Part shown: piece after piece, positions 41,092-61,138 of the stretch
Numbering within the stretch: position 1 is the first letter of the stretch
Layout: each line of letters begins with the position of its first letter
Assembly (NCBI GenBank): GCA_900543485.1
Contig: UQRM01000002.1
Coordinates: 85,540 to 149,539, forward strand
Direction of reading: 5' to 3'
Length of the DNA: 64,000 bases
DNA from: an uncultured Eubacterium sp.
GTDB lineage: Bacteria > Bacillota > Clostridia > Peptostreptococcales > Anaerovoracaceae
Notes under the pieces: model-generated
Seen by the model: only the letters and a program-made list of their open reading frames with translations
What the model was told of the DNA's origin: nothing
Database searches by the model: none
Translations under genes and position numbers: made by a program

Positions 41092-41120
41092 GCAAAAATA
41101 TTGAAAGTCCCGCTACTTTC
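41092..41120 (-). terminator. Weak terminator overlapping the adhesin stop codon
   Basis: The hairpin GAAAGT/ACTTTC with a 6-nt loop (41103-41120) is followed leftward by AATATTTTTG. The stem is only 6 bp with little GC, so readthrough from the adhesin into rplU is possible. Confidence 0.4.
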
Positions 41121-44100
41121 TGGATTTTCGCCTTATCCCTGCCAGCACCGCAGCTATGGCTGCAAGGGACGCGGCCATGACGGCTGCCGGTATTGCCAGG
41201 CTGGTGTCGTCTCCGGTCTTCGTATCTGTATCGCTGTCATCAGCAGGCGGTATATCTTTGCTGTTGACGTATTTCACAGTGATGATGTCTCCGGCCGGGA
41301 TCGTTCCCTCGCTGTTCTCGGATCGTGTCACATATCCGTCGCTGCCGTCTTCCTCTTCTCTCACGGAATATCCTGTTCCTCCCGGAAGGCCGTCAGCACT
41401 CAGCGATTCTCCATCGCTGAGGGTGAACCGTGCCTTTCCGTCTTCGAATTCCATATCGCCGTACAGTCCTGTTATGTTCTCGTTATCCAGGGTCACGATG
41501 AAAGTAAACTCCTTATCTTTGTCTCCGGCATTGCCCTTCACCGTCTTAGTGACTGTAAGGCCGCCCCTGGCGACGTTCTCTACAGTCATACCGTCTACAC
41601 GGACGTCGTATCCGTCAGGCACTTCCTTCTCGGCGACGGTATACTCTATCCTGACTCCGTCCTCGTCATATTCAGGCAGTCCTTCGAAGGTGTAAGCCCA
41701 TCGGCCATCGTCCGTATCCGGCCTTTCCACCGTCGCTTCCCTGTATTCCTCGCCATTGGCGCAGAGCACCAGCCGGATACTGTCAGGTCTGGTCCCTCCC
41801 TTGTCGTCGCTGTCGGTCCAGACCTTCTCCACAGGGATGTCTATCGTATCGGTCAGCGTGTTGGTAAGGGCGTATCCATTATCGGAAGTGCCTTCCGACC
41901 CCGCCCGGTATACATCGCCGTCTCCGGCTTCCATCTCCTCCGCTTCCTTCACGCTGTAGGCATACTCATTCCCCCGGCTGTCTGTGACAGGCAAGCCTGT
42001 GTACTGATAAGACCATCGGTCTCCATCCTTATTCGCCCACCGGAATGCGATGCCTTCCTCCTTCATCGTATCAGCGTCGACGAGGGCCGGTTCTCCTCCT
42101 GCTGTCGCTCTGTAAAGCTTCAGCTCCACATCATCAGGTCTGGTGCCGTAGGCGCCGCCGTTGTCCTTCCAGGTCTTGCTTCCCTCTATATCTGTCCTGC
42201 CTACGTTTATTATCCTGGTGGAATAATCTCCCGAAGCAGGATCCCTTCCGTTCTTGTAGCTGATATACAGCTCATCCTCCGGCGGTTCTTCCCCTCCGAT
42301 GGCAGTCTCCCTGGCAAAGTAGACGTATGTCTTGCCTTCACCGTCGTACTTAGGAAGATCCTCTATGGTGACGTTCCAACCGTTGCCTTTGTTCAATGTA
42401 ACGGTCATCTCTCCGCCGTCGTTGCCCGGCACAGCCTCATCCCGGCTGTCCCCATCCAGCTTGCCTGCCTCCAGCTCCTCATCAGTCACCGCTGCTCTGT
42501 ATATGGACGCCGTCACTTCCTTCAGCGCGTCCGGCTCGACTCCCAGCCATGACTTCTCCACGGTGAGAGAAGTCTTTTCGTTGTTGGATATATCAAAGGT
42601 ATGGTATTTTTCCCCATCGTAATTTTTATCACCGCCTGTCGTCTCTATCAGGTACCTGCCCCTATCCTTCTCCACTACCGTATAAATAGTATGGCCATCA
42701 TTATCGAGACTGCTTCCCGCCATGACCAGCGGTACATTGGACCATGAAGCCCTCCACGAATCGTATTCTCCGTACGAAGCTCCGACGGCAGGCAGACTGC
42801 CTGGCACCGTCTGAGCAAGCTCAGGAATACCGTCCAGCGTTACTGTGGCCGCAGGGACAAATGAACGCCACGTCTCACCGTCTTCATCGAGATATTTCAG
42901 CTCGAAGGTGAGCGTCTGTTTATCCTTTATTCCTTTGTTCCAGATCTTGTCGGCGTATATCCTCGTCGTCTCCAGACGGTTGGTCACAGTCGTTACACCG
43001 TCCTCACGATCGTAGTCCACCTCATAGGACGTGTTGTAGCGGTCATTGCCCGCCGTTCCGTCTATGACGGTATCATCCGTATCGAGCTCCCTTATCCTGT
43101 ACTGGTAAGTGCCGCCTGTAAGGCCTGTCTCCGGAAGTCCGCTGAAGGTCACCACATCGGATCCCGTCTGCAGGTCAGTCCCGTAGATGGTGATGGTAAG
43201 AGGCGTTTCGCCGCCCTCTCCATTCACCATTACATCCGACCATTCATCGCCGTCAAGGCGTTGCTGAACCACGAATGTCACTTCCCAGTCGTAATCGCCG
43301 CGGCCCGTCTCCTCTCTCGTGCCGTAGGCGTTGTTATCATCGCCCTGCCATATCTTCTTCGCGGCCATCTCCGTCGTCTTCAGCATATTGGCAAAATCGC
43401 TGTCGCTATCGTTGTAGGCACCGTCAGATGACCAGCCGTCGCCGTCAGGGTATGCCGGGGCGAAAGGGCCGTCGAAAGCACCGGCGTCCTCATCGCCAAC
43501 AGACGCCTCCGGAAATTCCAACTTGTAGGTCGTTCCCTCATCGGCTGTCACGTTCACGTTCTGGATCACGGTATTTTCTCCAGCCTCATATCTTATCTTC
43601 CTCTCTACCACCCGATATGTCAGCTGCGTCGTTTCCGCCGAAGAACTATCTTTCTTTATATATCCCGGAAGACCGGAGAATGAGCCTCTGTTATCCTTTC
43701 CCCATACCTCATCGTCGTCTATATGGCCTGTTTTAGTCTGGGTGAACTGATATTCGCCATCTTCACCGAATACATTCTCGTACGCACTCCGGCCATTATC
43801 GTCAATCCAGCCAAGATTTGTCCGGAAATACGTTTCCGCATCGCTCCATTCAGATATCTGCTCCTGACTGTCCTCTCCTTTCGTCACCTCGGCTACCTGG
43901 AGGGTGAAATCTACGGAAAGTTCCACGCCCAGCAGATCCTCGTCTATCACATCACCGTCGCTGTCGACCCACGTCTTGCTGAAAGAGGTCGAGGTCATCA
44001 TGCTGTTGGTCAGATGGCCGAGAGTTATCTCGCCGCTGTCTCCCGCCGCGCCTTTCGCGGAAGTCTCGCCTCCCGCAGGCGTCATATCGTATATCTCAGC

Positions 44101-47100
44101 CGCTCCGCCGTCTGTATCCGCTAATGTCTCCCTGACGGAATATTTCCACGGCATGCCGTTAGGCGCATACTTTTCAAGCTCGACGGCGACCTGCTTGCCG
44201 GTTATGGTATAAGTCCAGACGTTGCCGCTCGTCTCATCCCATATCACACTATACAACCCATCCGACACCTCGGTTTTCCCTATGGAATTGCTCTGTCCCG
44301 GCTGTGAGTCGGCCTGCCTGTAAAGCGTCAGCGTTATTTCATCCGGCCTTGTTCCGAACACGTCATCGTAATCGTTCCAGTTTTTCTGCCCTGAGACGGT
44401 CACAATCTCCCTTTCAGTATCCTGTCTGTTGATGAAGGTGGCGGCGATCGTCCTTTCCTCTTCCGTGCCGTCTTCGCTGTCAGCCGCAGGAGTCAGCTCT
44501 CCTGTCGCCGGATCGCCGGGAACAGGCTCTCCCGTCATCTTCGTCTCAGCATCTTCAATAGCCACATCCCCCTCCACGGCCCACGTATCGTAACCGTTGA
44601 GGCTGCTCTTCACCTCCTTGACGGTATAGACGTACGGTGAACCGTTGGGAGCGTATATCTCCAGGGCTTCAAAGGTGATGACCTTTTCCAGCGGCTCGAA
44701 ATCGCCGTTCTCATCGACCTGCGACCCGTTCACGGTCACAGGATCTCCTGTGAAGAAGGACGCTATCTTCGAAAGCAGGCCTCCGGCCTGGCTCTCATAC
44801 TCGTCCCGTACAGCTTCCGAACTCCATGTCATTGTGTCCACTGTCTCAGCAGGCGAGGTGGTCCCATCGTTTTTCGTATAGGTCCTGGTCAGTTCAAAGG
44901 TGACGGCAGGATATGCCTCCGGAGCCCACCGTTCTCCATCTTTTGCCATCGGAAGGTACAGAAGCTTCTTTACGGAAAGTGACCCCAGGTTTTCCTCGTT
45001 ATCATAAGTATTCTCGATGACCACGCCGGAGCTGCTGCCGGCCTGGTCGAACACCTTGGAAAAATCCGGGCCTGTGATGTTGCTACCGCTGCCCTGAATA
45101 TCAGTAGCCATGGAGGTCTCCACTACGGTGTACCTCCACAGATTGCCGTCCTCATCGTACTTCTGGAGTCTGGAAGCATTTTCGTCTTCAGGCGTTATCA
45201 CCATTTCCCCGTCCTCTCCGAAGTTATATTCATTCACACCTTCATACAGGAACTGGAATCTGTAACTGCCATTCCTCGATATATCCGCCCAATCGCTCCC
45301 CTTTATGGTGATCTCGGCAATCTTCTTTCCATCGGTGGCCGGATCGCCGGAAGAATCGCTTGCCAGCTGCCTGTAAAGGGTGAAGGTCGCCGTAGGCAGA
45401 TCTTTCATATCATAACCTGCCGGCAGGGAGCTCCACAGCTTTTCCGCCGTCACCTCCACGTACCTGTCCAGATGATTGTTGAATGTTCCTTCCTCGATGA
45501 GGGCATAGTGAGAAGTCCCGTATCCATCTCCCAACTCCACATCGCTGACGTTCTGAACGTATCCATTTTCTATCGCAGCCTCTGTTACCTCGTATTCCGA
45601 GCCGATATAATCCTCCGATGTAACATCTTCGTCTGTCCCATCGTGATTCGGATCGAGATAGTATACGTCGGTGTAGTCGAATGAACCTCTGTCCACAATG
45701 GTCTTCTCGATGGCATAATAGGTCATCTCATATCCCAGGGCGTCGTACTTTGGAACACCCTCTATCTGAGCCAGCCAGTAATGCTCCCTGCTGTACTGTC
45801 CGCCCTGATCCGTCAGCTCATCGTCAAAGGTCCATCTGTAATCCCGCTGATATACCTGCATCTGCTCCTTTATCGCCCCGTCTTCCTCATAGTGGGAAAC
45901 ACTGTAGATGTCAAGATATATGTCGGGACGCAGGCTGTTTTCATAATTATACAGATCGTGCCACAGCTTCTTCCATTTGATATCTTTCGCTCCGGAAAGA
46001 TAGTTTTCCACACCGATGGTCTGTACGTCCGGTTTGCCGTGGTTATCGACGATCTGATACTCGCCCTCCGCGTACCTGGTGCTGTAGTCGGCGATGAGGC
46101 TGTAGAGGTTTTCATACTTTTTCTCGATGTCACCTCGCGATATCTCCTTGCCGTCTTCGATCCACACCTCCCGTATGTCGTAACGGACGATATCGCTGTT
46201 GGCGTCATACTTAGGCAGGTTGTAGAAATATATCTTCTGATCATCCGTAAAATCCACGGTCTGCCTGTAGGAAACACGGTTTCCCTCATTGTCGTATATA
46301 GCGACATCGCTTTCCTTTCGTCCGATGGACACGTAACCGTTGCCGTCTTTGTCATTACCCACTTTGTAATCGCCGTGGTTGGCGTTGTACTGAGCGCTGT
46401 CGTGGAAATCAAGCTCAATGGCGAGCCGGATGTCAACACCACTTTCTTCTTTGATTCGGCTCAGCTCGTCCGCTATCGCCTGTCTCTGGCTCCCGTCTCC
46501 GTCGGTCCATTCCTTGGTCACGGTGAGATCCACATTACCCAGCCGCCTGTTCTCAGCCGTGTAAAACTTAAGACCTTCCACCGTTTCCACGCTGTAGCTG
46601 ACCTCGTACTTGTGATTTTCGGCCTGATACTGGAGGGTGGAGTAATCGTTGTTGCTGCCTGTATCCAGGACAGGGGCGTCGCCGGTCCATGAATCGTATA
46701 AATCCTTATCAGCAGGAATGTCCGTATCCCCGACCTGCGTCTCCAGTATGTACACATCGTCCGGATCTACGTCGGCCGGAATGCTCAGCCAGTCGTACCA
46801 TGCTCCCTGAGAACCGTCCCCGTCAGTCTGCCCCAACGTTACGCTTCCTAAAGGCTCGTCAGGATTTGTCTTATCATAAGCCGTTATGGTCACCGGCTCC
46901 CTGTGGGCGATGTCGCTGTTGTCGTTCCAGTTCTTCCTGACCATGATCCGCTGGCCGGAGCCCGGTTTGTTGATAACAGTCGCGTAATAATCCCCATCCT
47001 GATCCTTCGTCACCTCGTATTCAGGGATATACGCCTGTTCTCCCGCCATTTCCAGCAGCACATACTCGTACTGATTCCCGTTCTCGTCAAATTCCACCAA

Positions 47101-49824
47101 CGGACTGACGACGGCATTCCATGGGCTCTCCTCCCTGACGGATATTCCCAGCTCTTCATTTACCTTCTCGGCCTCCTCGTCGGCCTCGCCATCCATGGTA
47201 AACTCCGCCACCTTCTTATCACTCGTTATATCTTCACCGTTGATGACCCTGTATATGGCAAATTTCACGGACGCATCTTCAGGCGGGTCCGTCTCCTTGC
47301 CATCTTCATCGTACCACTTCTTATCCACCGTATACTTGACGGTGTTGGCGATACTGTTAGTTATGACAGTATCGCCTGTCTCCTCATCTGTCTCCGACAG
47401 CGAAGTGTACTTCACATCCCTGCCATCCTGACGGAGAACAAAGAAGGCCTTCAGAAAATTCTCCTCATCGACCGTCAGCTCGATCTTTTCATCCCCCTGA
47501 TATACGCCTGTCTCCCGCCAGATATACTGGAGCTGCTGGCCGAACTCATCGTACTTCGGCACGGTCTCGCTTATATCGTCCACAGATATCTCAGCCGAGA
47601 AATCCTCCATGGTCCGGGTCTTCCCTGTCGATTCCCATCGTTCATCATCTTTGGTCTTCGAATAAAGGGTCATTTCTATTTTCACCCCATCGAATGCTGC
47701 CTGGAAGGCGGCGGCATTCCATATCTTTGACACGGACACGCTGGTGCTTTCATCTATCCTGTTGAGGATGATCCCGCCGTTGTAGAGGAAGGTATTGCCT
47801 TCCTGGCGGCGAGGCTCGTTATCAGGATCCTCCCCGGTGATCTCCACACCTTCTACCGTATCATGATATCCATTGACTCCTCCGAATACCTGAATATAAT
47901 TCTGTGCTGCTTCGTTATCTTTATCAGTCGTATCCAGATATTCCCTGAGGACGTAGTAATACCTGTACCCTTCCGTATCGTACTTCGGAAGGTCCTCGAA
48001 CTGGAGCTTCTGGGAATCGAATCCATCTTCTCCCTCGACCGGATCCTTCGATCCGCTGCTGTCCAGCTCTATGCTCATTATATCGCCTGTTCCGTCTCTG
48101 ACAGGAGCTGCGGTAGCATAGCTGCTGCCTTCCCTGTATCTCCAGAGCTGGAACTCTCCCGTAGGCCGGTTATCGACAGTCTCGTCTTCGCCGTCATCGA
48201 GCCATATCTTGGCGGCTTCATAATCTCTCGTTCCTGCCAGAGTAAGATACATGGTGCCGCCATCGTAAAGCTGGTCAGTCTGGGATGAAAATCCCGGAAC
48301 AGCCGTGTTGTCATAGATTATCGAGTAGTAATCCCCCTTTTCAAATCCGGGAACGTCTTCAAAATCATCGACCAGGATCTTGTCCTCATCTTCAAACTTA
48401 TCCTCCATGCTGTAGGTTATTCTCGTACCGTCCAGGTTGTACTTCGGCACACCTGTCATGCTGCACTTGCCGTTCTTGTTCTCGCTGTCGACCTCCACAT
48501 CTATATCGAATCTGCCGCTGTGCTCCTCGTCCGTCAGATCGATGGATTCCCTCACGTCCTGACGATATTCGACATTGAAATAGAAATTCTTCTTTATCAC
48601 ATCCTCCGCAACAGTCTCATCCACAGCATTCCCGCCCTTTCTGAAAGCGAGATCGAACACTATGTCCTCCATAAGGACATAGTACCATCCGGGCTCTGTC
48701 AGACCGGTATAAATACTTTCACCTGATCCTATGTCCTCCCGGGTAACCTCCGTAAGCTGATAACCGTTCGCTGCCGCCGGAACTACTTCCCACTGGATAT
48801 CATCGTAAACTGTAGCATCCCCATATGCATCGTAATATGTCACCTTGCTCGGGAGCTGAGGGATCTGGACGTTCCATCTGCCTATGCCGTTTTCAGTGAT
48901 ACTCACTTCAGGCATCTGAGTAAGGCCGAGAGTCGCCATGTTATCCGCAGTAAGCTCGGTGAAGCTGCCGTTTCCTTCCAGGGAAAAGCGAAGCACAGGA
49001 ACCATCTCCGCAGTCCCGGGCCTGATGCTCATTTCGTCATTGTTGTCCACCCAGAAGATATCGAAGGACTGGACGTCCTGTCTCTCGTCTATATCGACAC
49101 GCTCCCGGGAAGACAGGCTCCTTGCTGTCATCTTCCCGGAGAGGCTGTTCTTCCCGGATAAACTATCTGTTCCGAAAAGACCCGGCAGATCCTTCTCATC
49201 GGATATCATGACTGTGAAGCTCTCCGCGTCCACGGCTATATTTTCCGCATCTACAGGCTCCGCCTCATTTCCTTCTCCATATCGCGCCCCGGCCAGGACA
49301 TCACCGGCCTCCACAGCCACGTCATGTGCTCCCGGCTCCGTCGCGGCTCCCTCAGCCTTTCCAAAGTCAAGATCCGCTTTCAATACAGGCTCCTGGCGAT
49401 CCAACGTGAATTCGAGGAAAAGCGCCCCATCATCTCCGTGTCTGATAGAAATATCATTCCCTGCGGAAGGTTTGACCGTTATGGTCTCGTCCAGCTCCGA
49501 TCCGGGATCTCGAAACTGCATGAGAAGCTGAGCCTCGTCTTCCTCCAGCCTTATCTCCATATCCACGGAGTCCGCCCCGCTCTTTTCAGGATCATAGGCA
49601 GCCTCGAGGGAAACCTTCACCTTTTCCCTCTCAGCGTTGTCGTACGCCTTCTCAGGCTTCCAGGACAGCGTGATCATACGGCCGTCGGCTCCGCCTTCCG
49701 TCCCGGAGTCTTCTTTATCCCGTCCCCCCTCGTATGCAGCACTTATCGTACCCGGCATCATCGTCACTATCATGACCAGCGTCATCATCATGACCATGAA
49801 CTTCTTCCCTGCACTCACTCTCAT
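41113..49824 (-). CDS. Giant Cna-B-repeat surface adhesin
   Basis: A 2903-residue secreted, cell-surface protein. Residues 1-29 are a signal peptide (MMMTLVMIVTMMPGTISA). Residues about 30-530 are a non-repetitive, acidic N-terminal region. From about residue 535 come around 15-16 Cna-B-type domains, each opening with a K-x-W pattern (AAKIWLDDG, DKKWYDEDG, VRKNWNDNS, GQKNWNDYDD, GSKTWKDNGG, VEKVWTDSDD) and often RPDxxxLxLYR. Such domains usually form Lys-Asn isopeptide bonds. The C terminus has DTKTGDDTS (TGD at 2870-2872), a hydrophobic stretch (about 2876-2896) and RRKSRK: a sorting-signal-like end without the usual Pro. It lies 44 nt after an HTH gene that is itself next to an invertible promoter. 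No sortase is in the window. Ligand unknown. Confidence 0.92.
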   Translation of the reverse strand: MRVSAGKKFMVMMMTLVMIVTMMPGTISAAYEGGRDKEDSGTEGGADGRMITLSWKPEKAYDNAEREKVKVSLEAAYDPEKSGADSVDMEIRLEEDEAQLLMQFRDPGSELDETITVKPSAGNDISIRHGDDGALFLEFTLDRQEPVLKADLDFGKAEGAATEPGAHDVAVEAGDVLAGARYGEGNEAEPVDAENIAVDAESFTVMISDEKDLPGLFGTDSLSGKNSLSGKMTARSLSSRERVDIDERQDVQSFDIFWVDNNDEMSIRPGTAEMVPVLRFSLEGNGSFTELTADNMATLGLTQMPEVSITENGIGRWNVQIPQLPSKVTYYDAYGDATVYDDIQWEVVPAAANGYQLTEVTREDIGSGESIYTGLTEPGWYYVLMEDIVFDLAFRKGGNAVDETVAEDVIKKNFYFNVEYRQDVRESIDLTDEEHSGRFDIDVEVDSENKNGKCSMTGVPKYNLDGTRITYSMEDKFEDEDKILVDDFEDVPGFEKGDYYSIIYDNTAVPGFSSQTDQLYDGGTMYLTLAGTRDYEAAKIWLDDGEDETVDNRPTGEFQLWRYREGSSYATAAPVRDGTGDIMSIELDSSGSKDPVEGEDGFDSQKLQFEDLPKYDTEGYRYYYVLREYLDTTDKDNEAAQNYIQVFGGVNGYHDTVEGVEITGEDPDNEPRRQEGNTFLYNGGIILNRIDESTSVSVSKIWNAAAFQAAFDGVKIEMTLYSKTKDDERWESTGKTRTMEDFSAEISVDDISETVPKYDEFGQQLQYIWRETGVYQGDEKIELTVDEENFLKAFFVLRQDGRDVKYTSLSETDEETGDTVITNSIANTVKYTVDKKWYDEDGKETDPPEDASVKFAIYRVINGEDITSDKKVAEFTMDGEADEEAEKVNEELGISVREESPWNAVVSPLVEFDENGNQYEYVLLEMAGEQAYIPEYEVTKDQDGDYYATVINKPGSGQRIMVRKNWNDNSDIAHREPVTITAYDKTNPDEPLGSVTLGQTDGDGSQGAWYDWLSIPADVDPDDVYILETQVGDTDIPADKDLYDSWTGDAPVLDTGSNNDYSTLQYQAENHKYEVSYSVETVEGLKFYTAENRRLGNVDLTVTKEWTDGDGSQRQAIADELSRIKEESGVDIRLAIELDFHDSAQYNANHGDYKVGNDKDGNGYVSIGRKESDVAIYDNEGNRVSYRQTVDFTDDQKIYFYNLPKYDANSDIVRYDIREVWIEDGKEISRGDIEKKYENLYSLIADYSTRYAEGEYQIVDNHGKPDVQTIGVENYLSGAKDIKWKKLWHDLYNYENSLRPDIYLDIYSVSHYEEDGAIKEQMQVYQRDYRWTFDDELTDQGGQYSREHYWLAQIEGVPKYDALGYEMTYYAIEKTIVDRGSFDYTDVYYLDPNHDGTDEDVTSEDYIGSEYEVTEAAIENGYVQNVSDVELGDGYGTSHYALIEEGTFNNHLDRYVEVTAEKLWSSLPAGYDMKDLPTATFTLYRQLASDSSGDPATDGKKIAEITIKGSDWADISRNGSYRFQFLYEGVNEYNFGEDGEMVITPEDENASRLQKYDEDGNLWRYTVVETSMATDIQGSGSNITGPDFSKVFDQAGSSSGVVIENTYDNEENLGSLSVKKLLYLPMAKDGERWAPEAYPAVTFELTRTYTKNDGTTSPAETVDTMTWSSEAVRDEYESQAGGLLSKIASFFTGDPVTVNGSQVDENGDFEPLEKVITFEALEIYAPNGSPYVYTVKEVKSSLNGYDTWAVEGDVAIEDAETKMTGEPVPGDPATGELTPAADSEDGTEEERTIAATFINRQDTEREIVTVSGQKNWNDYDDVFGTRPDEITLTLYRQADSQPGQSNSIGKTEVSDGLYSVIWDETSGNVWTYTITGKQVAVELEKYAPNGMPWKYSVRETLADTDGGAAEIYDMTPAGGETSAKGAAGDSGEITLGHLTNSMMTSTSFSKTWVDSDGDVIDEDLLGVELSVDFTLQVAEVTKGEDSQEQISEWSDAETYFRTNLGWIDDNGRSAYENVFGEDGEYQFTQTKTGHIDDDEVWGKDNRGSFSGLPGYIKKDSSSAETTQLTYRVVERKIRYEAGENTVIQNVNVTADEGTTYKLEFPEASVGDEDAGAFDGPFAPAYPDGDGWSSDGAYNDSDSDFANMLKTTEMAAKKIWQGDDNNAYGTREETGRGDYDWEVTFVVQQRLDGDEWSDVMVNGEGGETPLTITIYGTDLQTGSDVVTFSGLPETGLTGGTYQYRIRELDTDDTVIDGTAGNDRYNTSYEVDYDREDGVTTVTNRLETTRIYADKIWNKGIKDKQTLTFELKYLDEDGETWRSFVPAATVTLDGIPELAQTVPGSLPAVGASYGEYDSWRASWSNVPLVMAGSSLDNDGHTIYTVVEKDRGRYLIETTGGDKNYDGEKYHTFDISNNEKTSLTVEKSWLGVEPDALKEVTASIYRAAVTDEELEAGKLDGDSRDEAVPGNDGGEMTVTLNKGNGWNVTIEDLPKYDGEGKTYVYFARETAIGGEEPPEDELYISYKNGRDPASGDYSTRIINVGRTDIEGSKTWKDNGGAYGTRPDDVELKLYRATAGGEPALVDADTMKEEGIAFRWANKDGDRWSYQYTGLPVTDSRGNEYAYSVKEAEEMEAGDGDVYRAGSEGTSDNGYALTNTLTDTIDIPVEKVWTDSDDKGGTRPDSIRLVLCANGEEYREATVERPDTDDGRWAYTFEGLPEYDEDGVRIEYTVAEKEVPDGYDVRVDGMTVENVARGGLTVTKTVKGNAGDKDKEFTFIVTLDNENITGLYGDMEFEDGKARFTLSDGESLSADGLPGGTGYSVREEEDGSDGYVTRSENSEGTIPAGDIITVKYVNSKDIPPADDSDTDTKTGDDTSLAIPAAVMAASLAAIAAVLAGIRRKSRK

Positions 49825-49868: not shown

Positions 49869-50321
49869 TCAGAGTTTCCCGGATGCCCTCTTCTTCATCT
49901 CCTCCAGCTCAGCACGCTGTCTTTTTATGACATGCTCCTGTTTCCTTATCAGCCCCCGCAGCAGCTTTATATGCTCCGCGGCTTCAAATCTGCCGTCCGC
50001 TCCGGGATCCCTGCGCTTATCGGTCATATGACGAGTATCGCCATCCGCTCCGGAATCGGGGATGTCGATGTCAAGGGCGCCTGAGCAATACATCGCTCTC
50101 CACCTCGAACATGCTCTCTCGACCCTTTTCGATCCAAGCACTGTCGTATCGAATCCCGCATTCCTGAATATATTTCCAGGTCGTTCTCCATTCAGATATT
50201 TGCACATGAACAACTTCTTGAAGTCATCGGAATATTTTATCCGCGCAGAATCTACCGATACGACGTACGGATTGCGCCTGAGTTCTTCGATCTCCTCCTG
50301 CGTAAGCTTTCCTCGTCCCAC
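49869..50321 (-). CDS. Small HTH protein with C-terminal coiled coil, upstream of the adhesin
   Basis: A 150-residue basic protein. After LTQEEIEELRRNPYV comes a helix-turn-helix-like block (YSDDFKKLFMCKYLNGERPG, then IFRNAGFDTTVLGSKRVERA), reminiscent of the HTH of IS3-type OrfA proteins and of a small family found near adhesins. The end (about 115-150) is a charged coiled coil (LIRKQEHVIKRQRAELEEMK). The GTG at 50321 has GAGGAGGGAG a few nt before it and lies outside the invertible segment; a longer reading would start inside that segment. It is probably co-transcribed with the adhesin and could control the operon or its switch. Confidence 0.75.
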   Translation of the reverse strand: MGRGKLTQEEIEELRRNPYVVSVDSARIKYSDDFKKLFMCKYLNGERPGNIFRNAGFDTTVLGSKRVERACSRWRAMYCSGALDIDIPDSGADGDTRHMTDKRRDPGADGRFEAAEHIKLLRGLIRKQEHVIKRQRAELEEMKKRASGKL

Positions 50322-50392: not shown

Positions 50393-50420
50393 ATACCACA
50401 TAATTCGTCTTATGTTGTAT
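50393..50420. repeat. Left recombination site of the inversion switch
   Basis: Arms ATACCACATAA and TTATGTTGTAT (10 of 11 complementary) surround the spacer TTCGTC (50404-50409). The 17 bp at 50399-50415 recur exactly, inverted, at 50688-50704. Layout (two inverted arms and a 6-bp crossover spacer) is typical for tyrosine recombinase core sites. Confidence 0.85.
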
Positions 50421-50543
50421 GGATCTCCGACAGTTTGTACCATTGCTAAACAAAAAAGGGATATAAAGGATTTTTCGTAAAGATCAGGTTAACGATCATC
50501 GAAACGATGATAAAAAAAGAAGATATGTCAGTCATCTAAAGTA

Positions 50544-50580
50544 ACCCTTAATTGGCTTTTTCAAGCATAAGGGTGATTTT
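50544..50580 (+). terminator. Terminator-like hairpin inside the invertible segment
   Basis: ACCCTTA (50544-50550) pairs with TAAGGGT (50568-50574), with TTG/CAA pairing inside, and is followed rightward by GATTTTTTG. It works in one direction only, so its effect changes with inversion. Confidence 0.5.
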
Positions 50581-50616
50581 TTGTGAAAAGAATGTTAAAT
50601 TGGTATTAAAGTTCAA

Positions 50617-50646
50617 TTGACATGCGCTGGTGTTACATACTATACT
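50617..50646 (+). promoter_or_regulatory. Strong sigma-A-type promoter on the invertible segment
   Basis: TTGACA, 18 nt, TATACT: a perfect -35 and near-perfect -10. In this orientation it reads rightward, antisense to the recombinase gene and away from the adhesin. After inversion it would lie at about 50457-50486, reading left, with a start about 130 nt before the HTH gene's GTG. Confidence 0.75.
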
Positions 50647-50682
50647 GTATATATCTAATCATATTTTAAAATGTATATCTAT

Positions 50683-50710
50683 GTACCACATAAGACGAAT
50701 TATGCCGTCA
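50683..50710. repeat. Right recombination site of the inversion switch
   Basis: Arms GTACCACATAA and TTATGCCGTCA surround spacer GACGAA (50694-50699), the reverse complement of the left spacer. The outer arm is less conserved (about 7 of 11) and its last 3 bases are the stop codon of the recombinase gene. Confidence 0.85.
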
Positions 50711-51544
50711 CAGCACCAATCCCAGCGCATCGATCTTTCTGCGATGTTCGTACCCTGAGGTCATTATATATATCCTGGTCGTGTCTATATTGCTGTGCCC
50801 CAGCACATCAGCCAGTTTCGCTATGTCCTTATCGTTTTCATAGAAACATCTGGCAAAAAGATGACGTACATTGTGCGGGAATACCTTTTCTTTCCCTACT
50901 CCTGCTTTTTCGCCGAGCCTTTTCATCATCTTCCATATGTTTGACCTGTCCAGCGGTTTCCTGCCGCTGGTCACGAAAACCGGGCCGCCGGTGAGTTTTT
51001 CCCTGCGTATATAGCTCTGGAGGCGTTTTTTCAGCCTTCCTGCGATAAGGACAGTCCTGTTCTTTCCCTTGAGCCATATACTGGCTTCCCCCTTTTCCAC
51101 AGCCTCCACCGTTATATATCTCAGCTCCGACACTCTTATGCCCGTACCGCCGAGGGTCTGCATCAACAGACTCATCCGCTCATCTCCCTGAGCTATCGCC
51201 TGATCGATCATGCTGAGATATTCACGCTTAGTCAGCTCCTTTTCTCCGGGGCAGTACGCACGCCGTTGTATTCTCATAGTCTTCACCCTCAGATCTCTTC
51301 TGCCTGTGTATTCAAGGAATCCGTTTATAGCCGCCAGCTTCGTATTCACACTGGAGACCCTGTACCTTTCGCAAAGCTGCATCTTATATTTTATGACCGC
51401 TTCCTTCGTTACGCATCCATCTGCCGCCGCTCTGCTCATTTCGATGATAAATGCCGAGATATCCCTGCGATACTGATTCACGGTCGCTCTGGACCGTTCT
51501 TTTCTCGTGAGATAACCAATGTAGCTTTCAAGTTGTTCATACAT
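50708..51544 (-). CDS. Tyrosine recombinase (site-specific invertase) of the adhesin switch
   Basis: A 278-residue tyrosine recombinase with an N-terminal SAM-like core-binding domain (about 1-90) and a catalytic domain with Arg137 (GGTGIRVSEL), Lys160/161 (WLKGKN), His224 and Arg227 (FPHNVRHLF), His250 (LGHSNIDTT) and nucleophile Tyr259 (TRIYI). All active-site residues are present. Its gene ends inside the right recombination site, so it is physically part of the switch, and it should invert the segment between the sites. The start at 51544 is best spaced from AAAGGGG; 51550 is an alternative. It has the promoter of the segment running antisense to its 3' end in this orientation. Confidence 0.93.
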   Translation of the reverse strand: MYEQLESYIGYLTRKERSRATVNQYRRDISAFIIEMSRAAADGCVTKEAVIKYKMQLCERYRVSSVNTKLAAINGFLEYTGRRDLRVKTMRIQRRAYCPGEKELTKREYLSMIDQAIAQGDERMSLLMQTLGGTGIRVSELRYITVEAVEKGEASIWLKGKNRTVLIAGRLKKRLQSYIRREKLTGGPVFVTSGRKPLDRSNIWKMMKRLGEKAGVGKEKVFPHNVRHLFARCFYENDKDIAKLADVLGHSNIDTTRIYIMTSGYEHRRKIDALGLVL

Positions 51545-51698
51545 GTTCATTTCCCCTTTCGATTTCTCATAAAATTGAACATTACATCAATATATATTAT
51601 ATCTGTTTTTACGTTGCATAAACCACCGCTTTACGCGGCAATAAACAGTATCATTGAGACAATCAATAAAACATATGAAAAAGGAGGATAATTAAGAT

Positions 51699-52322: not shown

Positions 52323-53045
52323 TCAGAGCTTCTCATTGGGATCCATCTCCTCATCGGTCATGGGCATCTTGATGAGAAGCTCGAATTTGCTTTTTTCAAA
52401 CTTCAACAATCCTTCATCACGCATCTTGCAGAGTTCTTTCGACATCGCGCTGCGATCCGCGAAGAGAAAATCCGCCAGTTCCTGTCTGTTTAACGGTATG
52501 GAAAAAGTGCGGCTCTTTTCCTCATGATACCGCGCGGACAGGTAATCCTGAAGTTTTTCACGCGTCGACCGTCTGACACTGTCCTCCAGCTTCACCGTCA
52601 GATCGTGTGCTTTCTGAGCCAATGCCACGGTAAGATTCCGAAGGAACCGGAGCTGCAAAGGCGTTATCGGCGAATCTCCCCTCAGGAGCGGATCTACATC
52701 GATCAGCAGCAGTTCCGTCTCCTCCAGCGCCATCGCTGATACGTGAAGCCTATATTTGCCTACGGCATTGAGCATCCCCACGGTATCTCCCGGTCCCGGC
52801 ACCTCCAGCAGATTGCTGTTCCCGTTGGGGTCTATATGGAAAAGATGTATTTTACCCGACAAGACGATCATCATGCTCCCGACAAGTTCACCATCCTGAA
52901 GGATCATATCTTTTTTCTGAAACCTTCTCACCCTCGGGTCCATCGCGTCGATGACATCTAATATCTCCTCTTTCGTCATAGTGCGGAACAGGACGCTTTC
53001 CTCCAGCGCCTTCATACCGGCAGTCTTTATCTCAAGACCCTTCAT
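52323..53045 (-). CDS. Crp/Fnr-family transcriptional regulator
   Basis: A 240-residue regulator: N-terminal cyclic-nucleotide-binding-type beta domain (about 15-135, ILQDGELVGSMMIVLSGKIH, VPGPGDTVGML) and C-terminal winged HTH (NRQELADFLFADRSAMSKEL). No Fnr-type cysteine cluster is seen, so it is unlikely to sense oxygen by Fe-S; the ligand is unknown. It overlaps a 68-residue gene upstream by 4 nt (ATGA). Targets cannot be read from the sequence. Confidence 0.9.
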   Translation of the reverse strand: MKGLEIKTAGMKALEESVLFRTMTKEEILDVIDAMDPRVRRFQKKDMILQDGELVGSMMIVLSGKIHLFHIDPNGNSNLLEVPGPGDTVGMLNAVGKYRLHVSAMALEETELLLIDVDPLLRGDSPITPLQLRFLRNLTVALAQKAHDLTVKLEDSVRRSTREKLQDYLSARYHEEKSRTFSIPLNRQELADFLFADRSAMSKELCKMRDEGLLKFEKSKFELLIKMPMTDEEMDPNEKL

Positions 53046-53283: not shown

Positions 53284-56200
53284 TTATCTTCTGAAACTTA
53301 TGTCTGGTAACAACACCGCGGTTTCTTCTTCATCAGTTTTACCTTTCCATGCTACTATAAACCTGACTTTTGAGGAAACCAGATGATATCCCTTATTATA
53401 CAACTTTTCCAGCCTCTCACGGAAACCTTTTGAAAATTTCACCACTTTGATTCGTCTCCCGTCAATATCAGCATAAATATGATCACCTGATACGAACAAC
53501 TCATTTCCACTGCGCATCCTGAAAATGTCCCGTTTCCTCCCTTTGAAAAAATCAAGGACTACATCCCTGTAACCCAGCTGGATCGTGACCTCTCCGCTTT
53601 CCGTATACATTTCACGATCTACAGTATATTCTATCCCATCCGGGATCATGTCTTTGAACATCCCCGTATCACAATGGATATACAACTCATCCTTCGCTCT
53701 CGTCATCCCAACATATATTTTCCGCTTTTCTTCATCTGTGATGGCTAATATCCCCTTGAGCATCATATATACTATATCGAATTCTCTTCCCTTAGACTTA
53801 TGGATCGTCGAAACATAGACCGCCTCTCTTTTGTCATCATAAAAATCCTCATACCTGGACTGTCTTATGAATTCTTCAAGATCATTACGATATTTCATCG
53901 GATATACCATCTCGAAATCCCGGATCATATTTTTACAATTCTCAAGACATTCGCTTTCTGAATACACTCTCATCAAGCTCATTTTTGCTTCTTCCCATAC
54001 TGCGTCCGGTATAGCCGGTGTCTGCAAATTCCTGTCTATCACTTTCAGGAAATATCTTACCTCTACCAGATTATACAGAGAAACGCTGTCATCCAGGGAT
54101 TGGATCAATTTTGTCCTTACACCTTGTCGCTTTAGAAGCCCCATGATCCGCAGCGCTTCGTCATTGGTATTAGTTAGAACACAGACCCTTCCGCTGCTGT
54201 GTCTGTCGACGATATCATGGACCAATGGTTCCTCCATAAAGCTGCAACAGTGCTGGACGATCACAACGTTGCCGCGCTCCTGCCGAACCGCTCTGACTGC
54301 TGACTCTTTCATCCTATGGCTGATCAAACCGGCGAAAGCGTTACTCAACTTCACTATATCTGCCTTACTGCGATGATTTTCCGTCATTTCATATTTAACA
54401 GCTCCATGTTCATCTATTAAAGAACGCAGATATTTCGAATCAGAGCCACGGAACTGATAGATGTTCTGGTCATCGTCACCGACAGCAATAACTCTCATAT
54501 CATCGTTTTTACGCATCAGCGCTTCCAGCAATCGAAACTCGTTCTCATCCATATCCTGTGCTTCATCGATGACGAGTACATTCTTTGTGATCTTACCCTG
54601 CTCTACTTCTCCACGCTCGATCATTACCGCCGCGTTTTTCACGACATCTTTGATGTCCTCAAGATTCCCCGTCTTGCCAATCAAATCGAAGCAATACGAA
54701 TGAAAAGTCTTGATTTCCACAAAGTAAGCCGCGCGTCCGATCAATGAAATAAGCCGTTTCTTGAATTCCACCGCTGCCGCGCGGGAAAACGTCAACATCA
54801 GGAGCTGTTCATTCTTTACATCCTCCAACATCAGCAGAGAAGCCAATTTATGTACCAATACACGGGTTTTCCCGCTTCCCGGTCCCGCGGCAACTACGAT
54901 ATACTTTGATTCGGCATCATTGATGATATTCAACTGCGTATCAGACAGCTCTCCAAATATCCTGTTATACTTTTTTAACGTGATATTCCTATTGATCTCA
55001 TTAACGCGCTCACCTTTAAAGTATTTCGCGATAAATTTCCTAAAATCCATCTGAAAATAGTCATGCACAAATTGTAATGCGGCATTATAATCCCTTACCA
55101 TCATATTCGCATATTCACCTACAATGTGGATCTGCTGGATCTTATGCTTGTAAAAATCATCTAGGAACCTGTAATCGTCTACTTTGTACTTTATTCTATT
55201 ATCTACGACGAGTCGTTTTATCTCCATCCTGTTGTAGAGAACGAGAAAACCACCTTCCAGTCTCAATGCGCCGATCTTAGATAAATAAAGAAGCGCGTCT
55301 TCAACATCTTTCAACGCGATCTTTTCCTTATATGTATCTATGCGTGGAATATCGTTATACTCCTTGTAAAGCTCTACGATGGAAAACAGGACTTTCTTCC
55401 CGTCTCTTCCATAACCAATGATCTCGTCGCCTGTCTTTTTATACAAAAAATCGATAATGAACCTGCATATATCTATTCTCCGGCTATACCTTTCCAGCAG
55501 CTGCGCCGTCGGCATCGTCGCCGAAAACTCCGTGATTCCCGTATCCTGGTCCATCCTTTTCTGTACGTAATTATTAATGATGTGATAGTACAAAATAGTA
55601 CGTATATTTTTAACACTTGACGTCTTTAACCCATCTGCCTGCGCGTCCTCGTTCAGCTCCTTGAAATTGAGCGTATGCCACTCCTCCGCCGACTGAGAGA
55701 GCATAAATTTCTCCAGTTTCGAGAAACGGTCAAGGATCATCTTGGATCTCTTTTCTGTATCTGTATCGAAAATATACGCAGACATATCCCTCTCATCGTT
55801 TAGCAAACCTTCCTGACGCATGAGATTGATCGCATTGATCACATCTTTTCTTTCTATCCCCAGCATATCCGCCATATAGTCTACTCTCGATTCTCCCTCG
55901 TCTCCCGACGCCTTGCTTATGTACTTGCTGGAAATCAGAGAACTGATGATGCGTTTCGCGTCTACTCTCTGGCGTTCTGAAAACAGCGGAGACGTATTTA
56001 TCCTGTTTACCGCTTCCGCCATATTGTTTACAGAGATGCTCGTCGCGTACACCTGAGGCATGTTTCTCTCACGCTTAACATAACCGGCATTCTCAAGGGC
56101 CGATATCGCTGTCTTCACTCTCGTTTCGATTTCTCTGACAGAATCGTCCCATCCTGCCTGCCTCGCTATTTCGAGAGGTGAACAGCATACACGTTTTCGC

Positions 56201-58140
56201 ACCCCGGTCATATCTTTGATCGCTTTCCACACCTGCTGTATCTCATTGATGCTGAGCTTCGATCGATTGAGCATAGAGAAATGATTATCCAGATCATTAT
56301 CATTATACAGAACAAAACAATCCGCTTCCATGGAAGGGTCCCGTCCCGCACGTCCGGCTTCCTGAATATAATCCTCCAGTGAGCCTGAGATATCATAATG
56401 GATCACCAGCCCCACATCCTTTTTATCGACGCCCATTCCAAATGCTGACGTCGCAACGATGATATTTATCTCATTTCTGATAAAAGAGTCCTGATTCTTT
56501 ACTTTTTCCTCCGGATCCATCTGCCCATTAAAAGGGCAGGCAGGAAATCCGTCAGCCGTCAGCTTCTGAGCGATTTCACGAGTCTGCCTGGTTCTCGATA
56601 CATAAACGATCGTCGGACAATCTTTCGCGGAAATCAGGTTCCTGAGTGTATTATATTTTTCCGCGTCTGTTTCTTCATGAATAACTTTATAACGCAGGTT
56701 TTCACGGGTAGCTTCAGCAGCGAATACTTTGATATCCAAGTTTAACTTTTTCCTGAAGTAATCGCAAATATCACTGATGACCTTCTGCTTGGCTGTAGCG
56801 GTAAAACAGGATACAGGAATAACGCTCTTCGAACCTTTCTCTTTCATCAGACGTTTTATAAAATCCCCTATATACAGATAATCCACGCGAAAATCCTGTC
56901 CCCATGCGGAAAAGCAGTGGGCTTCATCGATTACGAACCGGACAACATTTCTGGAAATCAGAAGCCGTTCTATCGTCCTGGACCTAAGCTGCTCCGGCGA
57001 AATATATAAAAGGACAGCCGATCCGTCACCTATACGCCTGAAAGCGTCAGCGCGTTCTATCTCATTCAGCAACCCATTGATCGTCACAGCTTCCACGATC
57101 CCCTGTGCATTGAGATTATCCACCTGGTCTTTCATCAATGACTGTAGAGGAGAAATGACGACAGTAAGGCCATGTACCGTATTTCCTGCCATAAGAGCAG
57201 GGAGCTGAAATGTAAGCGACTTTCCCCCTCCCGTAGGGAATACCGCTAACAGCGATTTTCCATCCACTGCCGCCCGAACTGCCTCCTCCTGCAGAGCTTT
57301 ACCCCCATATGTCCTGAAACCATCGTAACCGAAGATTTTTTTCAATTCTTTCCGGACATTGAAATGCTGTCTGCAATAATCACATCCAGCCTCACAAGGC
57401 ATATTGCACAACATCTCCATCATGTGTCCAGTTTCGGGATAAGTGTTAACGACCCACGAGGGAATAGCAATACGATCACCGCAATTGATCAACGCCAGCG
57501 CATAGGCCAGCTCGACAGGATATTCCAAGATGAGCCGCTGTAGATCCGAATTCTCGCAGATCTTACCTGAAAAAACTGATTTGATCAAGGTTTCCGTATC
57601 CTGATCCGACGGTATGAAATCAATATACTGAAAAAAGCCTTTGAATTCTTCGTGGTCATAGAGCAACGCCGCAAAAATTCTCCTGATATCAGACGGCAAT
57701 AGAAAAAAAGCATTTATCTCATCTCTAAATAGTTTCTCCGCTTTCCTGCAATCATTTACAGGATTGTTCCATTCTCCATCCTGCAGCTTTTCGTCTTTGA
57801 ATAACGCATGTGATAATCTTTCCGGAAAAAGTAGAGGAGAGAGATATAAGGTATCGATCGCACGAAGATCCAGAGTTTTACTGAGAATGTTTTCCAAGTA
57901 TTTCAAATCATGATTTACGATGTTATGCCCGCAGATATATCCTGTCCCGGGCAAAAATCGTTGCAGATCTCTTTTAGAAGGAGAATGTAACTTCTCCCCA
58001 TCAGACCTGACCGCTCCTATATCCAGGATCTGCCCACTCTCAGCGCCTATTTCCAGGTCAAGAAACACGACTGGTTTATCCATCGCTAGCATTTTTCTTT
58101 TTCTAAATATGCCGTACTTATTCAACTTATTGCCACGCAT
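53284..58140 (-). CDS. Exonuclease-RecQ-UvrD fusion helicase (1618 residues)
   Basis: One chain with three enzyme modules. Residues about 22-140 resemble a DEDD exonuclease (VVFLDLEIG with Asp28 and Glu30; GHNIVNHDLKYL; NPVNDCRKAEKLF, where the usual His may be Asn). A Cys cluster (MPCEAGCDYC, 245-256) precedes a RecQ helicase: Walker A FPTGGGKS (301-308), Asp405-Glu-Ala-His408 (FVIDEAHCFSAWGQDFR), and the SF2 motif VI YIQEAGRAGRDP (591-602). Residues about 1070 to 1500 are a UvrD/PcrA-type SF1 helicase: Walker A AGPGSGKT (1085-1092), VIDEAQDMDENE, DDDQNIYQFRG, STIHKSKGREFD, YVGMTRAKDELYIH. It may process DNA ends or foreign DNA. Ribosome binding sites are weak at 58140 and at the alternatives 58092 and 58083. 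Flanking genes give no system. Confidence 0.9.
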   Translation of the reverse strand: MRGNKLNKYGIFRKRKMLAMDKPVVFLDLEIGAESGQILDIGAVRSDGEKLHSPSKRDLQRFLPGTGYICGHNIVNHDLKYLENILSKTLDLRAIDTLYLSPLLFPERLSHALFKDEKLQDGEWNNPVNDCRKAEKLFRDEINAFFLLPSDIRRIFAALLYDHEEFKGFFQYIDFIPSDQDTETLIKSVFSGKICENSDLQRLILEYPVELAYALALINCGDRIAIPSWVVNTYPETGHMMEMLCNMPCEAGCDYCRQHFNVRKELKKIFGYDGFRTYGGKALQEEAVRAAVDGKSLLAVFPTGGGKSLTFQLPALMAGNTVHGLTVVISPLQSLMKDQVDNLNAQGIVEAVTINGLLNEIERADAFRRIGDGSAVLLYISPEQLRSRTIERLLISRNVVRFVIDEAHCFSAWGQDFRVDYLYIGDFIKRLMKEKGSKSVIPVSCFTATAKQKVISDICDYFRKKLNLDIKVFAAEATRENLRYKVIHEETDAEKYNTLRNLISAKDCPTIVYVSRTRQTREIAQKLTADGFPACPFNGQMDPEEKVKNQDSFIRNEINIIVATSAFGMGVDKKDVGLVIHYDISGSLEDYIQEAGRAGRDPSMEADCFVLYNDNDLDNHFSMLNRSKLSINEIQQVWKAIKDMTGVRKRVCCSPLEIARQAGWDDSVREIETRVKTAISALENAGYVKRERNMPQVYATSISVNNMAEAVNRINTSPLFSERQRVDAKRIISSLISSKYISKASGDEGESRVDYMADMLGIERKDVINAINLMRQEGLLNDERDMSAYIFDTDTEKRSKMILDRFSKLEKFMLSQSAEEWHTLNFKELNEDAQADGLKTSSVKNIRTILYYHIINNYVQKRMDQDTGITEFSATMPTAQLLERYSRRIDICRFIIDFLYKKTGDEIIGYGRDGKKVLFSIVELYKEYNDIPRIDTYKEKIALKDVEDALLYLSKIGALRLEGGFLVLYNRMEIKRLVVDNRIKYKVDDYRFLDDFYKHKIQQIHIVGEYANMMVRDYNAALQFVHDYFQMDFRKFIAKYFKGERVNEINRNITLKKYNRIFGELSDTQLNIINDAESKYIVVAAGPGSGKTRVLVHKLASLLMLEDVKNEQLLMLTFSRAAAVEFKKRLISLIGRAAYFVEIKTFHSYCFDLIGKTGNLEDIKDVVKNAAVMIERGEVEQGKITKNVLVIDEAQDMDENEFRLLEALMRKNDDMRVIAVGDDDQNIYQFRGSDSKYLRSLIDEHGAVKYEMTENHRSKADIVKLSNAFAGLISHRMKESAVRAVRQERGNVVIVQHCCSFMEEPLVHDIVDRHSSGRVCVLTNTNDEALRIMGLLKRQGVRTKLIQSLDDSVSLYNLVEVRYFLKVIDRNLQTPAIPDAVWEEAKMSLMRVYSESECLENCKNMIRDFEMVYPMKYRNDLEEFIRQSRYEDFYDDKREAVYVSTIHKSKGREFDIVYMMLKGILAITDEEKRKIYVGMTRAKDELYIHCDTGMFKDMIPDGIEYTVDREMYTESGEVTIQLGYRDVVLDFFKGRKRDIFRMRSGNELFVSGDHIYADIDGRRIKVVKFSKGFRERLEKLYNKGYHLVSSKVRFIVAWKGKTDEEETAVLLPDISFRR

Positions 58141-61000: not shown

Positions 61001-61138
61001 CAGATGGTCCTTCTGCATATGTTTGTCTCAATTATACCTTAAGCCTCATCAAAAAACAGTTGTTTTTACCACAAAAACCAGGATAACTTTCAGCTCAAAA
61101 TTTCGTTCTGAGCTTTAAAGACAGAGATCCTTTTTTCA

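What the first reader, a model, noticed from the sequence alone, without database searches (positions are those of the whole stretch)
50393..51544. DNA-inversion promoter switch for a giant adhesin, with its own tyrosine recombinase
Seen directly: two sites in inverted orientation, each 11-bp arm + 6-bp spacer + 11-bp arm. They have a 17-bp identical core (50399-50415 and 50688-50704) and spacers that are exact reverse complements (TTCGTC, GACGAA). They bound about 290 bp with a consensus promoter and no gene. A complete tyrosine recombinase gene ends inside the right site. A small HTH gene and a 2903-residue Cna-B adhesin lie on the other side. This matches the logic of known clostridial switches (for example cwpV and flg of C. 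difficile with RecV), but here recombinase, sites, HTH gene and adhesin form one compact module.
Basis: partly seen in the sequence, partly recalled or inferred. Interest (0 to 1): 0.92.

Follow-up and report, generated by a model that had tools for sequence, protein, structure and literature searches.

The report
Flip-switch promoter beside giant surface protein
A bacterium, probably a gut Clostridia, carries a short stretch of DNA with a promoter that its neighbouring recombinase can probably flip, most likely turning a giant surface protein on and off, and many related bacteria carry the same kind of switch.

Summary
Two 24-bp sites (50395-50418, 50685-50708; ACCACATAA-N6-TTATGTGGT type) face each other around 266 bp holding one strong promoter. 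A complete tyrosine recombinase ends at the right site; an HTH gene and a 2903-aa Cna-B protein follow the left one.

Relatives make inversion close to certain for the family. 33 of 38 related recombinase loci have a site pair behind the recombinase, spacers exact reverse complements in 33 of 33. Two Mediterraneibacter MAGs have identical recombinases (828/828 nt) and adjoining flanks, but the 229-bp segment matches only as its reverse complement (229/229). Starting from the site alone, 12 of 13 new genomes had a family recombinase beside it.

It works like fim (promoter inside), not like cwpV, whose promoter lies outside the inverted DNA. A published Clostridia set (hCom2 inverton group 139) looks like the same family, but its motif was not readable. 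I file the window as a new member of a known kind. Possibly new: spacers that differ between loci, and segments often carrying a promoter one way and a terminator the other. No reads from the window's species were available.

The parts
50395..50418 (.). left recombination site ACCACATAA-TTCGTC-TTATGTTGT
   Evidence: 1 mismatch to the family consensus; 0 in 100 shuffles
50685..50708 (.). right recombination site, inverted, ACCACATAA-GACGAA-TTATGCCGT; its last base is the last base of the recombinase ORF
   Evidence: 2 mismatches to consensus; 0 in 100 shuffles
50419..50684 (.). 266-bp predicted invertible segment, without a credible gene
   Evidence: 155-440 bp in the relatives scored (the longest includes tandem sites)
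50617..50646 (+). promoter TTGACA-18-TATACT pointing away from HTH/adhesin (OFF as sequenced); -10 lies 38 bp from the segment edge
   Evidence: 11 of 12; 31 of 41 segments (window included) have a 10+/12 promoter with its -10 30-50 bp from an edge, shuffles mean 0.4, largest 2
50544..50583 (+). hairpin ACCCTTA..TAAGGGT followed by a T-run; terminator-like in the promoter's direction, upstream of it
   Evidence: -11.4 kcal/mol, z -1.8, 12 of 200 shuffles fold as well; not listed by the simple scan
50708..51550 (-). tyrosine recombinase, 280 aa, likely catalyst of the inversion
   Evidence: PF00589 4.3e-24; R139, K161, H226, R229, H252, Y261 invariant in 15 of 15 aligned sequences (window plus 14 of the 38 relatives)
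49869..50321 (-). small HTH protein (HTH_Tnp_2), 150 aa, likely GTG start
   Evidence: PF20310 9.5e-11; start judged from the GGAGGG upstream
41113..49824 (-). giant Cna-B surface protein, 2903 aa, with signal-peptide-like start and TKTGD-hydrophobic-RRKSRK end; likely target of the switch
   Evidence: PF05738 1.4e-59; signals read by eye; a homologue lies directly behind a related switch in L012

Best explanation
This is a fim-type phase-variation switch. The neighbouring tyrosine recombinase binds the two inverted ACCACATAA-N6-TTATGTGGT sites, exchanges strands within the identical 6-bp spacer and flips the 266-bp segment (inversion is shown by sequence for a related locus; the catalyst and the window's own inversion are inferred). 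The promoter inside points toward the recombinase in the sequenced state (adhesin OFF). After inversion it points through the left site into the HTH gene and the giant Cna-B protein, which start about 75 bp and 570 bp further on (ON; inferred). The recombinase coding sequence is not altered by the flip. The result would be a mixed population with and without the surface protein.
For: Site pair in 33 of the 38 relatives examined (39 loci found; L039, a 26%-identity Rhodobacteraceae hit, was left out before the count), spacers exact reverse complements in 33 of 33; a search for inverted repeats that assumes no motif finds a pair in the same 33. A few of the 33 are near-copies (L021/L023/L038, L028/L030, L013/L014). 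The five without a pair: L001, L008, L009 and L036 sit at contig ends (115, 33, 212 and 2 bp after the match); L037 has a truncated recombinase and no site. L013 and L014: recombinase 828/828 nt and adjoining flanks identical, segment 229/229 only as reverse complement. Homologous segments also lie in opposite orientation between L032 and L028/L030 (93% over 147 bp). Site-first test: exact site in 17 of 391 genomes of the class sample, reversed-pattern control 0; in the 13 genomes new to me, 12 have a family recombinase beside the site (one with an internal stop, one cut by the contig end) and 10 have the full pair. A promoter of 11+/12 in 29 of 41 segments, shuffle mean 0.6, pointing either way: 30 toward the recombinase, 7 away, 4 unclear. 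In G005 one contig begins and another ends exactly on a site with the same spacer, as a mixed orientation in the sample could produce.
Against: No reads or second assembly from the window's own species; only one orientation seen. No promoter, transcript or recombination was measured. In a wider sample (family of G005) 7 of 23 recombinase loci with enough flank show no inverted pair, so not every relative sits at a recognisable switch. The window's only terminator-like hairpin in the segment faces the same way as the promoter, unlike the opposing one found in 21 of 37 segments, so it is unclear what stops recombinase read-through into the HTH gene in the OFF state. The role of the HTH gene is unknown. 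Adhesin control is inferred from position and from one relative (L012).
Confidence: 0.9

Rival explanations
1. A cwpV-like switch: a promoter outside the segment (for example the recombinase's) transcribes through it, and inversion toggles termination.
For: Recombinase, HTH gene and adhesin all read in one direction; 21 of 37 segments carry a terminator-like hairpin facing opposite to the promoter, which in the OFF state would stop recombinase read-through. It may act together with promoter inversion.
Against: A strong, position-conserved promoter lies inside the segment in 31 of 41 cases; cwpV has none inside. The window lacks the opposing terminator.
Confidence: 0.07
2. The two sites are att remnants of an integrated cassette or element, not a switch.
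For: Tyrosine recombinases commonly integrate elements (general knowledge); relatives occur in phage records, best 41.6% identity.
Against: Sites face each other, the recombinase is outside them, there is no cargo, and one segment is found in both orientations with unchanged flanks. The recombinase search of viral contigs gave no relative and the exact site pattern one contig.
Confidence: 0.01
3. The palindromic sites are operators for a regulator and the recombinase is unrelated.
For: Each site is a near-perfect palindrome.
Against: Spacers vary between loci yet match within a pair in 33 of 33; a family recombinase stands beside 13 of 13 further complete pairs and in 12 of 13 site-first genomes; L013/L014 show physical inversion.
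Confidence: 0.01
4. The switch is real but has decayed or is locked OFF in this strain.
For: The window sites differ from consensus at 3 of 36 arm positions; a decayed relative exists (L037).
Against: Recombinase complete with its conserved residues; spacers perfectly matched; L002, with an open recombinase frame, has 4 site mismatches, though whether it inverts is not known.
Confidence: 0.08

Closest known systems
hCom2 inverton group 139 with invertase group 35 (PMC11892184, Microbiome 2025)
   Same: 33 invertons, 32 from Clostridia, nearly all with a nearby tyrosine-type recombinase; the two examples given span 255 and 257 bp; orientation shifts measured by reads (passages and section 8).
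   Different: The IR motif is in a supplement I could not read, so identity with the ACCACATAA-N6-TTATGTGGT family is likely but untested. The window's span, site to site, is 314 bp and has no read data.
E. coli fim switch (FimB/FimE)
   Same: Promoter inside a roughly 300-bp segment, recombinases beside it, surface structure downstream (described in passages of PMC2784873; fim length 314 bp in PMC5903667).
   Different: One recombinase here. Sites not compared; the recombinase is only a weak match to NCBIfam's tyrosine-type DNA invertase models, far below cut-off.
C. difficile cwpV and flg switches with RecV
   Same: Clostridial, XerC/XerD-type tyrosine recombinase, short inverted repeats, large surface protein (cwpV).
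   Different: cwpV promoter lies outside the segment, OFF by proposed termination, recV encoded elsewhere (PMC2784873). For flg only the start of an abstract was seen (PMC7446863).
C. difficile Cdi7 with CDR20291_3416
   Same: The only C. difficile R20291 switch with a recombinase in its vicinity (PMC5903667 passages).
   Different: Its segment contains a small ORF; the recombinase link is only suggested there. Sequences not compared here.

Membership tests
invertible-promoter switch (inverton) | inverted repeats bounding a short segment | tested here: met
invertible-promoter switch (inverton) | promoter inside the segment | tested here: met
   by consensus only:
invertible-promoter switch (inverton) | both orientations occur in nature | tested here: inconclusive
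   met for a homologous locus (L013/L014); the window's own species could not be tested
tyrosine recombinase family | catalytic R-K-H-R-H-Y residues (labels recalled) | tested here: met
   R139, K161, H226, R229, H252, Y261 invariant in 15 of 15 aligned, the window plus 14 of 38 relatives; PF00589
hCom2 inverton group 139 | the group's IR motif | not testable with these tools
   supplement look-ups not available; main-text passages only
hCom2 inverton group 139 | tyrosine-type recombinase next to the inverton | tested here: met
   window; 33 of 38 relatives
hCom2 inverton group 139 | span like the two published examples (255 and 257 bp) | tested here: inconclusive
   window 314 bp site to site; relatives' segments vary, 155-440 bp without the outer sites
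cwpV-type switch | promoter outside the inverted segment | tested here: not met
   promoter inside by consensus; definition
RecV-controlled switch | recombinase orthologous to RecV | not tested

The most novel reading that the evidence does not exclude
The window belongs to a large, so far unnamed family of self-contained surface-gene switches in Clostridia. Each locus carries its own recombinase plus its own 6-bp spacer that acts as an address, so that many switches in one genome do not recombine with each other. Recombinases and site arms co-diverge, and the flipped segment often exchanges a promoter for an opposing terminator, so that OFF is actively insulated from recombinase read-through. 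The cassette can be copied onto new surface operons, after which the copies still share a spacer and could recombine.
Probability: 0.5. Interest if true: 0.62.

Novelty: new member of a known kind. Interest (0 to 1): 0.47.

Why it matters
It offers a clean, testable recombinase-site pair in gut Clostridia, where fewer switches per genome have been reported than in Bacteroidota (PMC11892184 passage), and a simple sequence signature (paired sites with matched spacers behind a recombinase) for finding such switches without reads. The spacers that differ between loci make a direct prediction about how one genome keeps several switches from recombining with each other.

Tried and rejected
Own genome: not held, so neither a second orientation nor further copies in the same genome could be checked. 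Mobile-element reading: the recombinase search of viral contigs gave no relative, the exact site one viral contig with its own recombinase, phage records 78 relatives, all below 60% identity; rejected. Literature: seven searches. One search looked for the half-site letters; 284 papers hold them, 20 were listed and none of those concerns invertons, so this does not show that the motif is unpublished. The second recombinase search, aimed at named hCom2 species, showed none among the 120 proteins listed of 7999. HTH_Tnp_2 as a conserved part of the switch: rejected for now (weak because its controls found nothing). Expecting the ACCACATAA site at every relative: in the family sample only 4 of 30 recombinase loci have that pair and 5 a single site; 16 of the 23 with enough flank have an inverted pair, 12 of them with other letters. 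One search was a first pass on terminators, superseded.

Full report
What is there. The two inverted sites are real and not chance. The 17-bp perfect core pair is the only one in the window for spacings of 100-600 bp, with none in 30 shuffles, and the consensus site learned from relatives occurs exactly twice in 64 kb at up to 3 mismatches, 0 in 100 shuffles. Written in full the sites are ACCACATAA-TTCGTC-TTATGTTGT (50395-50418) and ACCACATAA-GACGAA-TTATGCCGT (50685-50708). The 266 bp between them hold one strong promoter, 50617-50646, + strand, 11 of 12; weaker promoter-like sites in the region are no more frequent than chance (3 found, 4.0 expected). The recombinase (50708-51550), HTH gene (49869-50321) and adhesin (41113-49824) are all on the - strand. 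So the promoter as sequenced fires toward the 3' end of the recombinase, away from the adhesin: the sequence shows the OFF state.

The recombinase. It matches Phage_integrase PF00589, falls below NCBIfam's cut-offs for XerA, XerC and XerD, and its best match among solved structures by sequence is XerA, 5hxy. Residues corresponding to the catalytic set (labels recalled) are invariant in 15 of 15 aligned sequences, the window plus 14 of the 38 relatives, as is the stretch RSNIWKMMK.

Relatives, recombinase first. A search of one genome per species gave 39 loci. I examined 38, leaving out L039, a 26%-identity hit in Rhodobacteraceae. 33 of 38 have two or more sites, the first within about 120 bp behind the recombinase, and the spacers of each pair are exact reverse complements in 33 of 33, although spacers differ widely between loci (threshold 5 of 18 arm mismatches, 2 in the core). 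A motif-free search finds an inverted pair in the same 33. Some of the 33 are near-copies (L021/L023/L038; L028/L030; L013/L014). Of the other five, four sit at contig ends and one (L037) has a truncated recombinase and no site. Record titles are Lachnospiraceae, Oscillospiraceae, other Clostridia and, for L017 and L018, Erysipelotrichaceae.

Relatives, site first. For 22 of the 39 loci I searched the whole genome they lie in: the site (up to 1 mismatch) occurs in 20 of 22 genomes, the reversed pattern in 0 of 22. I then took 17 stretches around site hits, 16 of them new (L076 repeats L008), plus one viral contig: 13 of 18 have a site pair and 13 of those 13 a family recombinase beside it; the other five have a single site, two of them with recombinase sequence. 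In a class-wide sample the exact site occurs in 17 of 391 genomes, control 0. Of the 13 genomes new to me, 12 have a family recombinase beside the site (G267's copy has an internal stop, G536's is cut by the contig end) and 10 the full pair; the thirteenth site lies at base 8 of its contig.

Inversion seen in nature. L013 and L014 are MAGs given different Candidatus Mediterraneibacter names. Their recombinases are identical over 828 nt, 18 bp before and 125 bp after the switch are identical, and the 229-bp segment matches 229/229 as reverse complement and only 80/229 directly. A second, more diverged case is L032 against L028/L030 (93% over 147 bp, inverted). In G005 one contig begins and another ends exactly on a site with the same spacer, as an assembler may do with a mixed population; that is my inference.

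Spacers within one genome. Read by eye, loci of one genome that are not near-copies have different spacers (for example four in G017). Exceptions, all near-copies: two sets of three contigs in G016 and the pair L028/L030 in G018, whose copies lie in unrelated flanks yet share a spacer. In G004 one spacer appears at the ends of two contigs, which may be the two halves of one locus. That different spacers prevent cross-talk is inference from how tyrosine recombinases work in general.

Promoter and terminator. Among 41 segments, the window included (near-duplicates L014, L023, L030 and L038 dropped; L064 and L065, near-copies of L063, not entered; for L019, L020, L025, L033 and L034 the segment was taken between the outermost sites), 29 have a promoter of at least 11 of 12 (shuffle mean 0.6, largest 3), and 31 have one of at least 10 whose -10 lies 30-50 bp from a segment edge (shuffle mean 0.4, largest 2). 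Orientation: 30 toward the recombinase, 7 away, 4 unclear (the dropped L014 points away). Upstream of the promoter, 21 of 37 segments have a terminator-like hairpin facing the opposite way (shuffle mean 1.05, largest 3) and 7 of 37 one facing the same way (shuffle mean 0.9, largest 3); four have both. In the OFF state an opposing terminator would stop recombinase transcripts from reaching the downstream operon (inference). The window has only a same-way one, which counts against extending this detail to it.

Targets. L012 has a 2746-aa Cna-B protein directly behind its switch, homologous to the window's adhesin (38-40% identity over the two pieces compared). Other examples are an Rrf2-type regulator followed by a large secreted protein without Pfam match (L005), an LRR/SLH protein some 2 kb on (L020), a signal peptidase (L010), or a helicase followed by what look by eye like glycan-synthesis genes (L021, L024). 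I did not count target classes over all loci. The adhesin target in the window is likely but inferred from position.

How wide the family is. In 197 genomes of the family of G005, 31 have a recombinase relative at E <= 1e-50. Of 30 loci fetched (two repeat L008 and L010), only 4 have the ACCACATAA pair and 5 a single such site. Of the 23 with at least 500 bp of flank, 16 have an inverted pair starting within 100 bp of the recombinase match, 12 of them with other letters (for example GGACAAAAT..ATTTTGTCC, GACAGAAT..ATTCTGTC), against 0 in 40 shuffles of the set; 7 have none. This suggests that recombinases and site arms diverge together, but not that every relative runs a switch.

What is known. 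Promoter inversion with a neighbouring recombinase is the fim design. The hCom2 study reports inverton group 139, 33 invertons of which 32 are from Clostridia, nearly all beside one tyrosine recombinase group, with orientation changes measured by reads in two examples (PMC11892184, passages and section 8). I judge it likely to be the same family, but its motif is in a supplement I could not read. Hence 'new member of a known kind'.

What stays inferred: inversion and its catalyst in the window's own species, ON/OFF control of the adhesin, and the role of the HTH gene.

Noticed in passing
L037:981-1950: A related recombinase gene that matches only to residue 212 of 280, so lacks the region with the last catalytic residues; no site is left before the surface gene, as if recombinase and sites decayed together.
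   Followed up: partly
L028 and L030 (same MAG): About 1.56 kb with recombinase, switch and the start of the downstream region is 93% identical at two loci with otherwise unrelated flanks and the same spacer: the cassette seems to have been copied between loci.
   Followed up: partly
L019, L020, L025, L033, L034, L071, L077, L108: Extra tandem copies of a site with the same spacer on one or both sides of the segment; role unknown.
   Followed up: no
L078-L107: Relatives with inverted pairs of other letters directly behind the recombinase, suggesting several site types in the wider family.
   Followed up: partly
G005:C6 base 1 and G005:C55 last base (L076, L075): One contig begins and another ends exactly on a site with the same spacer; a sign of mixed orientation, or of an assembly break at a repeat.
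   Followed up: partly
P0003, P0004: Recombinases 83-84% identical to the window's whose last residues differ from those of P0001 and P0002; cause unknown.
   Followed up: no
L032:4127-4426 and L062:8186-8494: Short matches to the C-terminal part of the window's adhesin away from the position directly behind a switch.
   Followed up: no
53284-58140: 1618-aa protein joining DEAD-type (RecQ-like by eye) and UvrD-type helicase domains, with an exonuclease-like start by eye.
   Followed up: no
59717-61018: Leucine-rich-repeat protein with internalin-model matches far below the curated cut-off.
   Followed up: no
52323-53045: Crp/Fnr-type regulator about 0.8 kb upstream of the recombinase start; whether it acts on the switch is unknown.
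   Followed up: no
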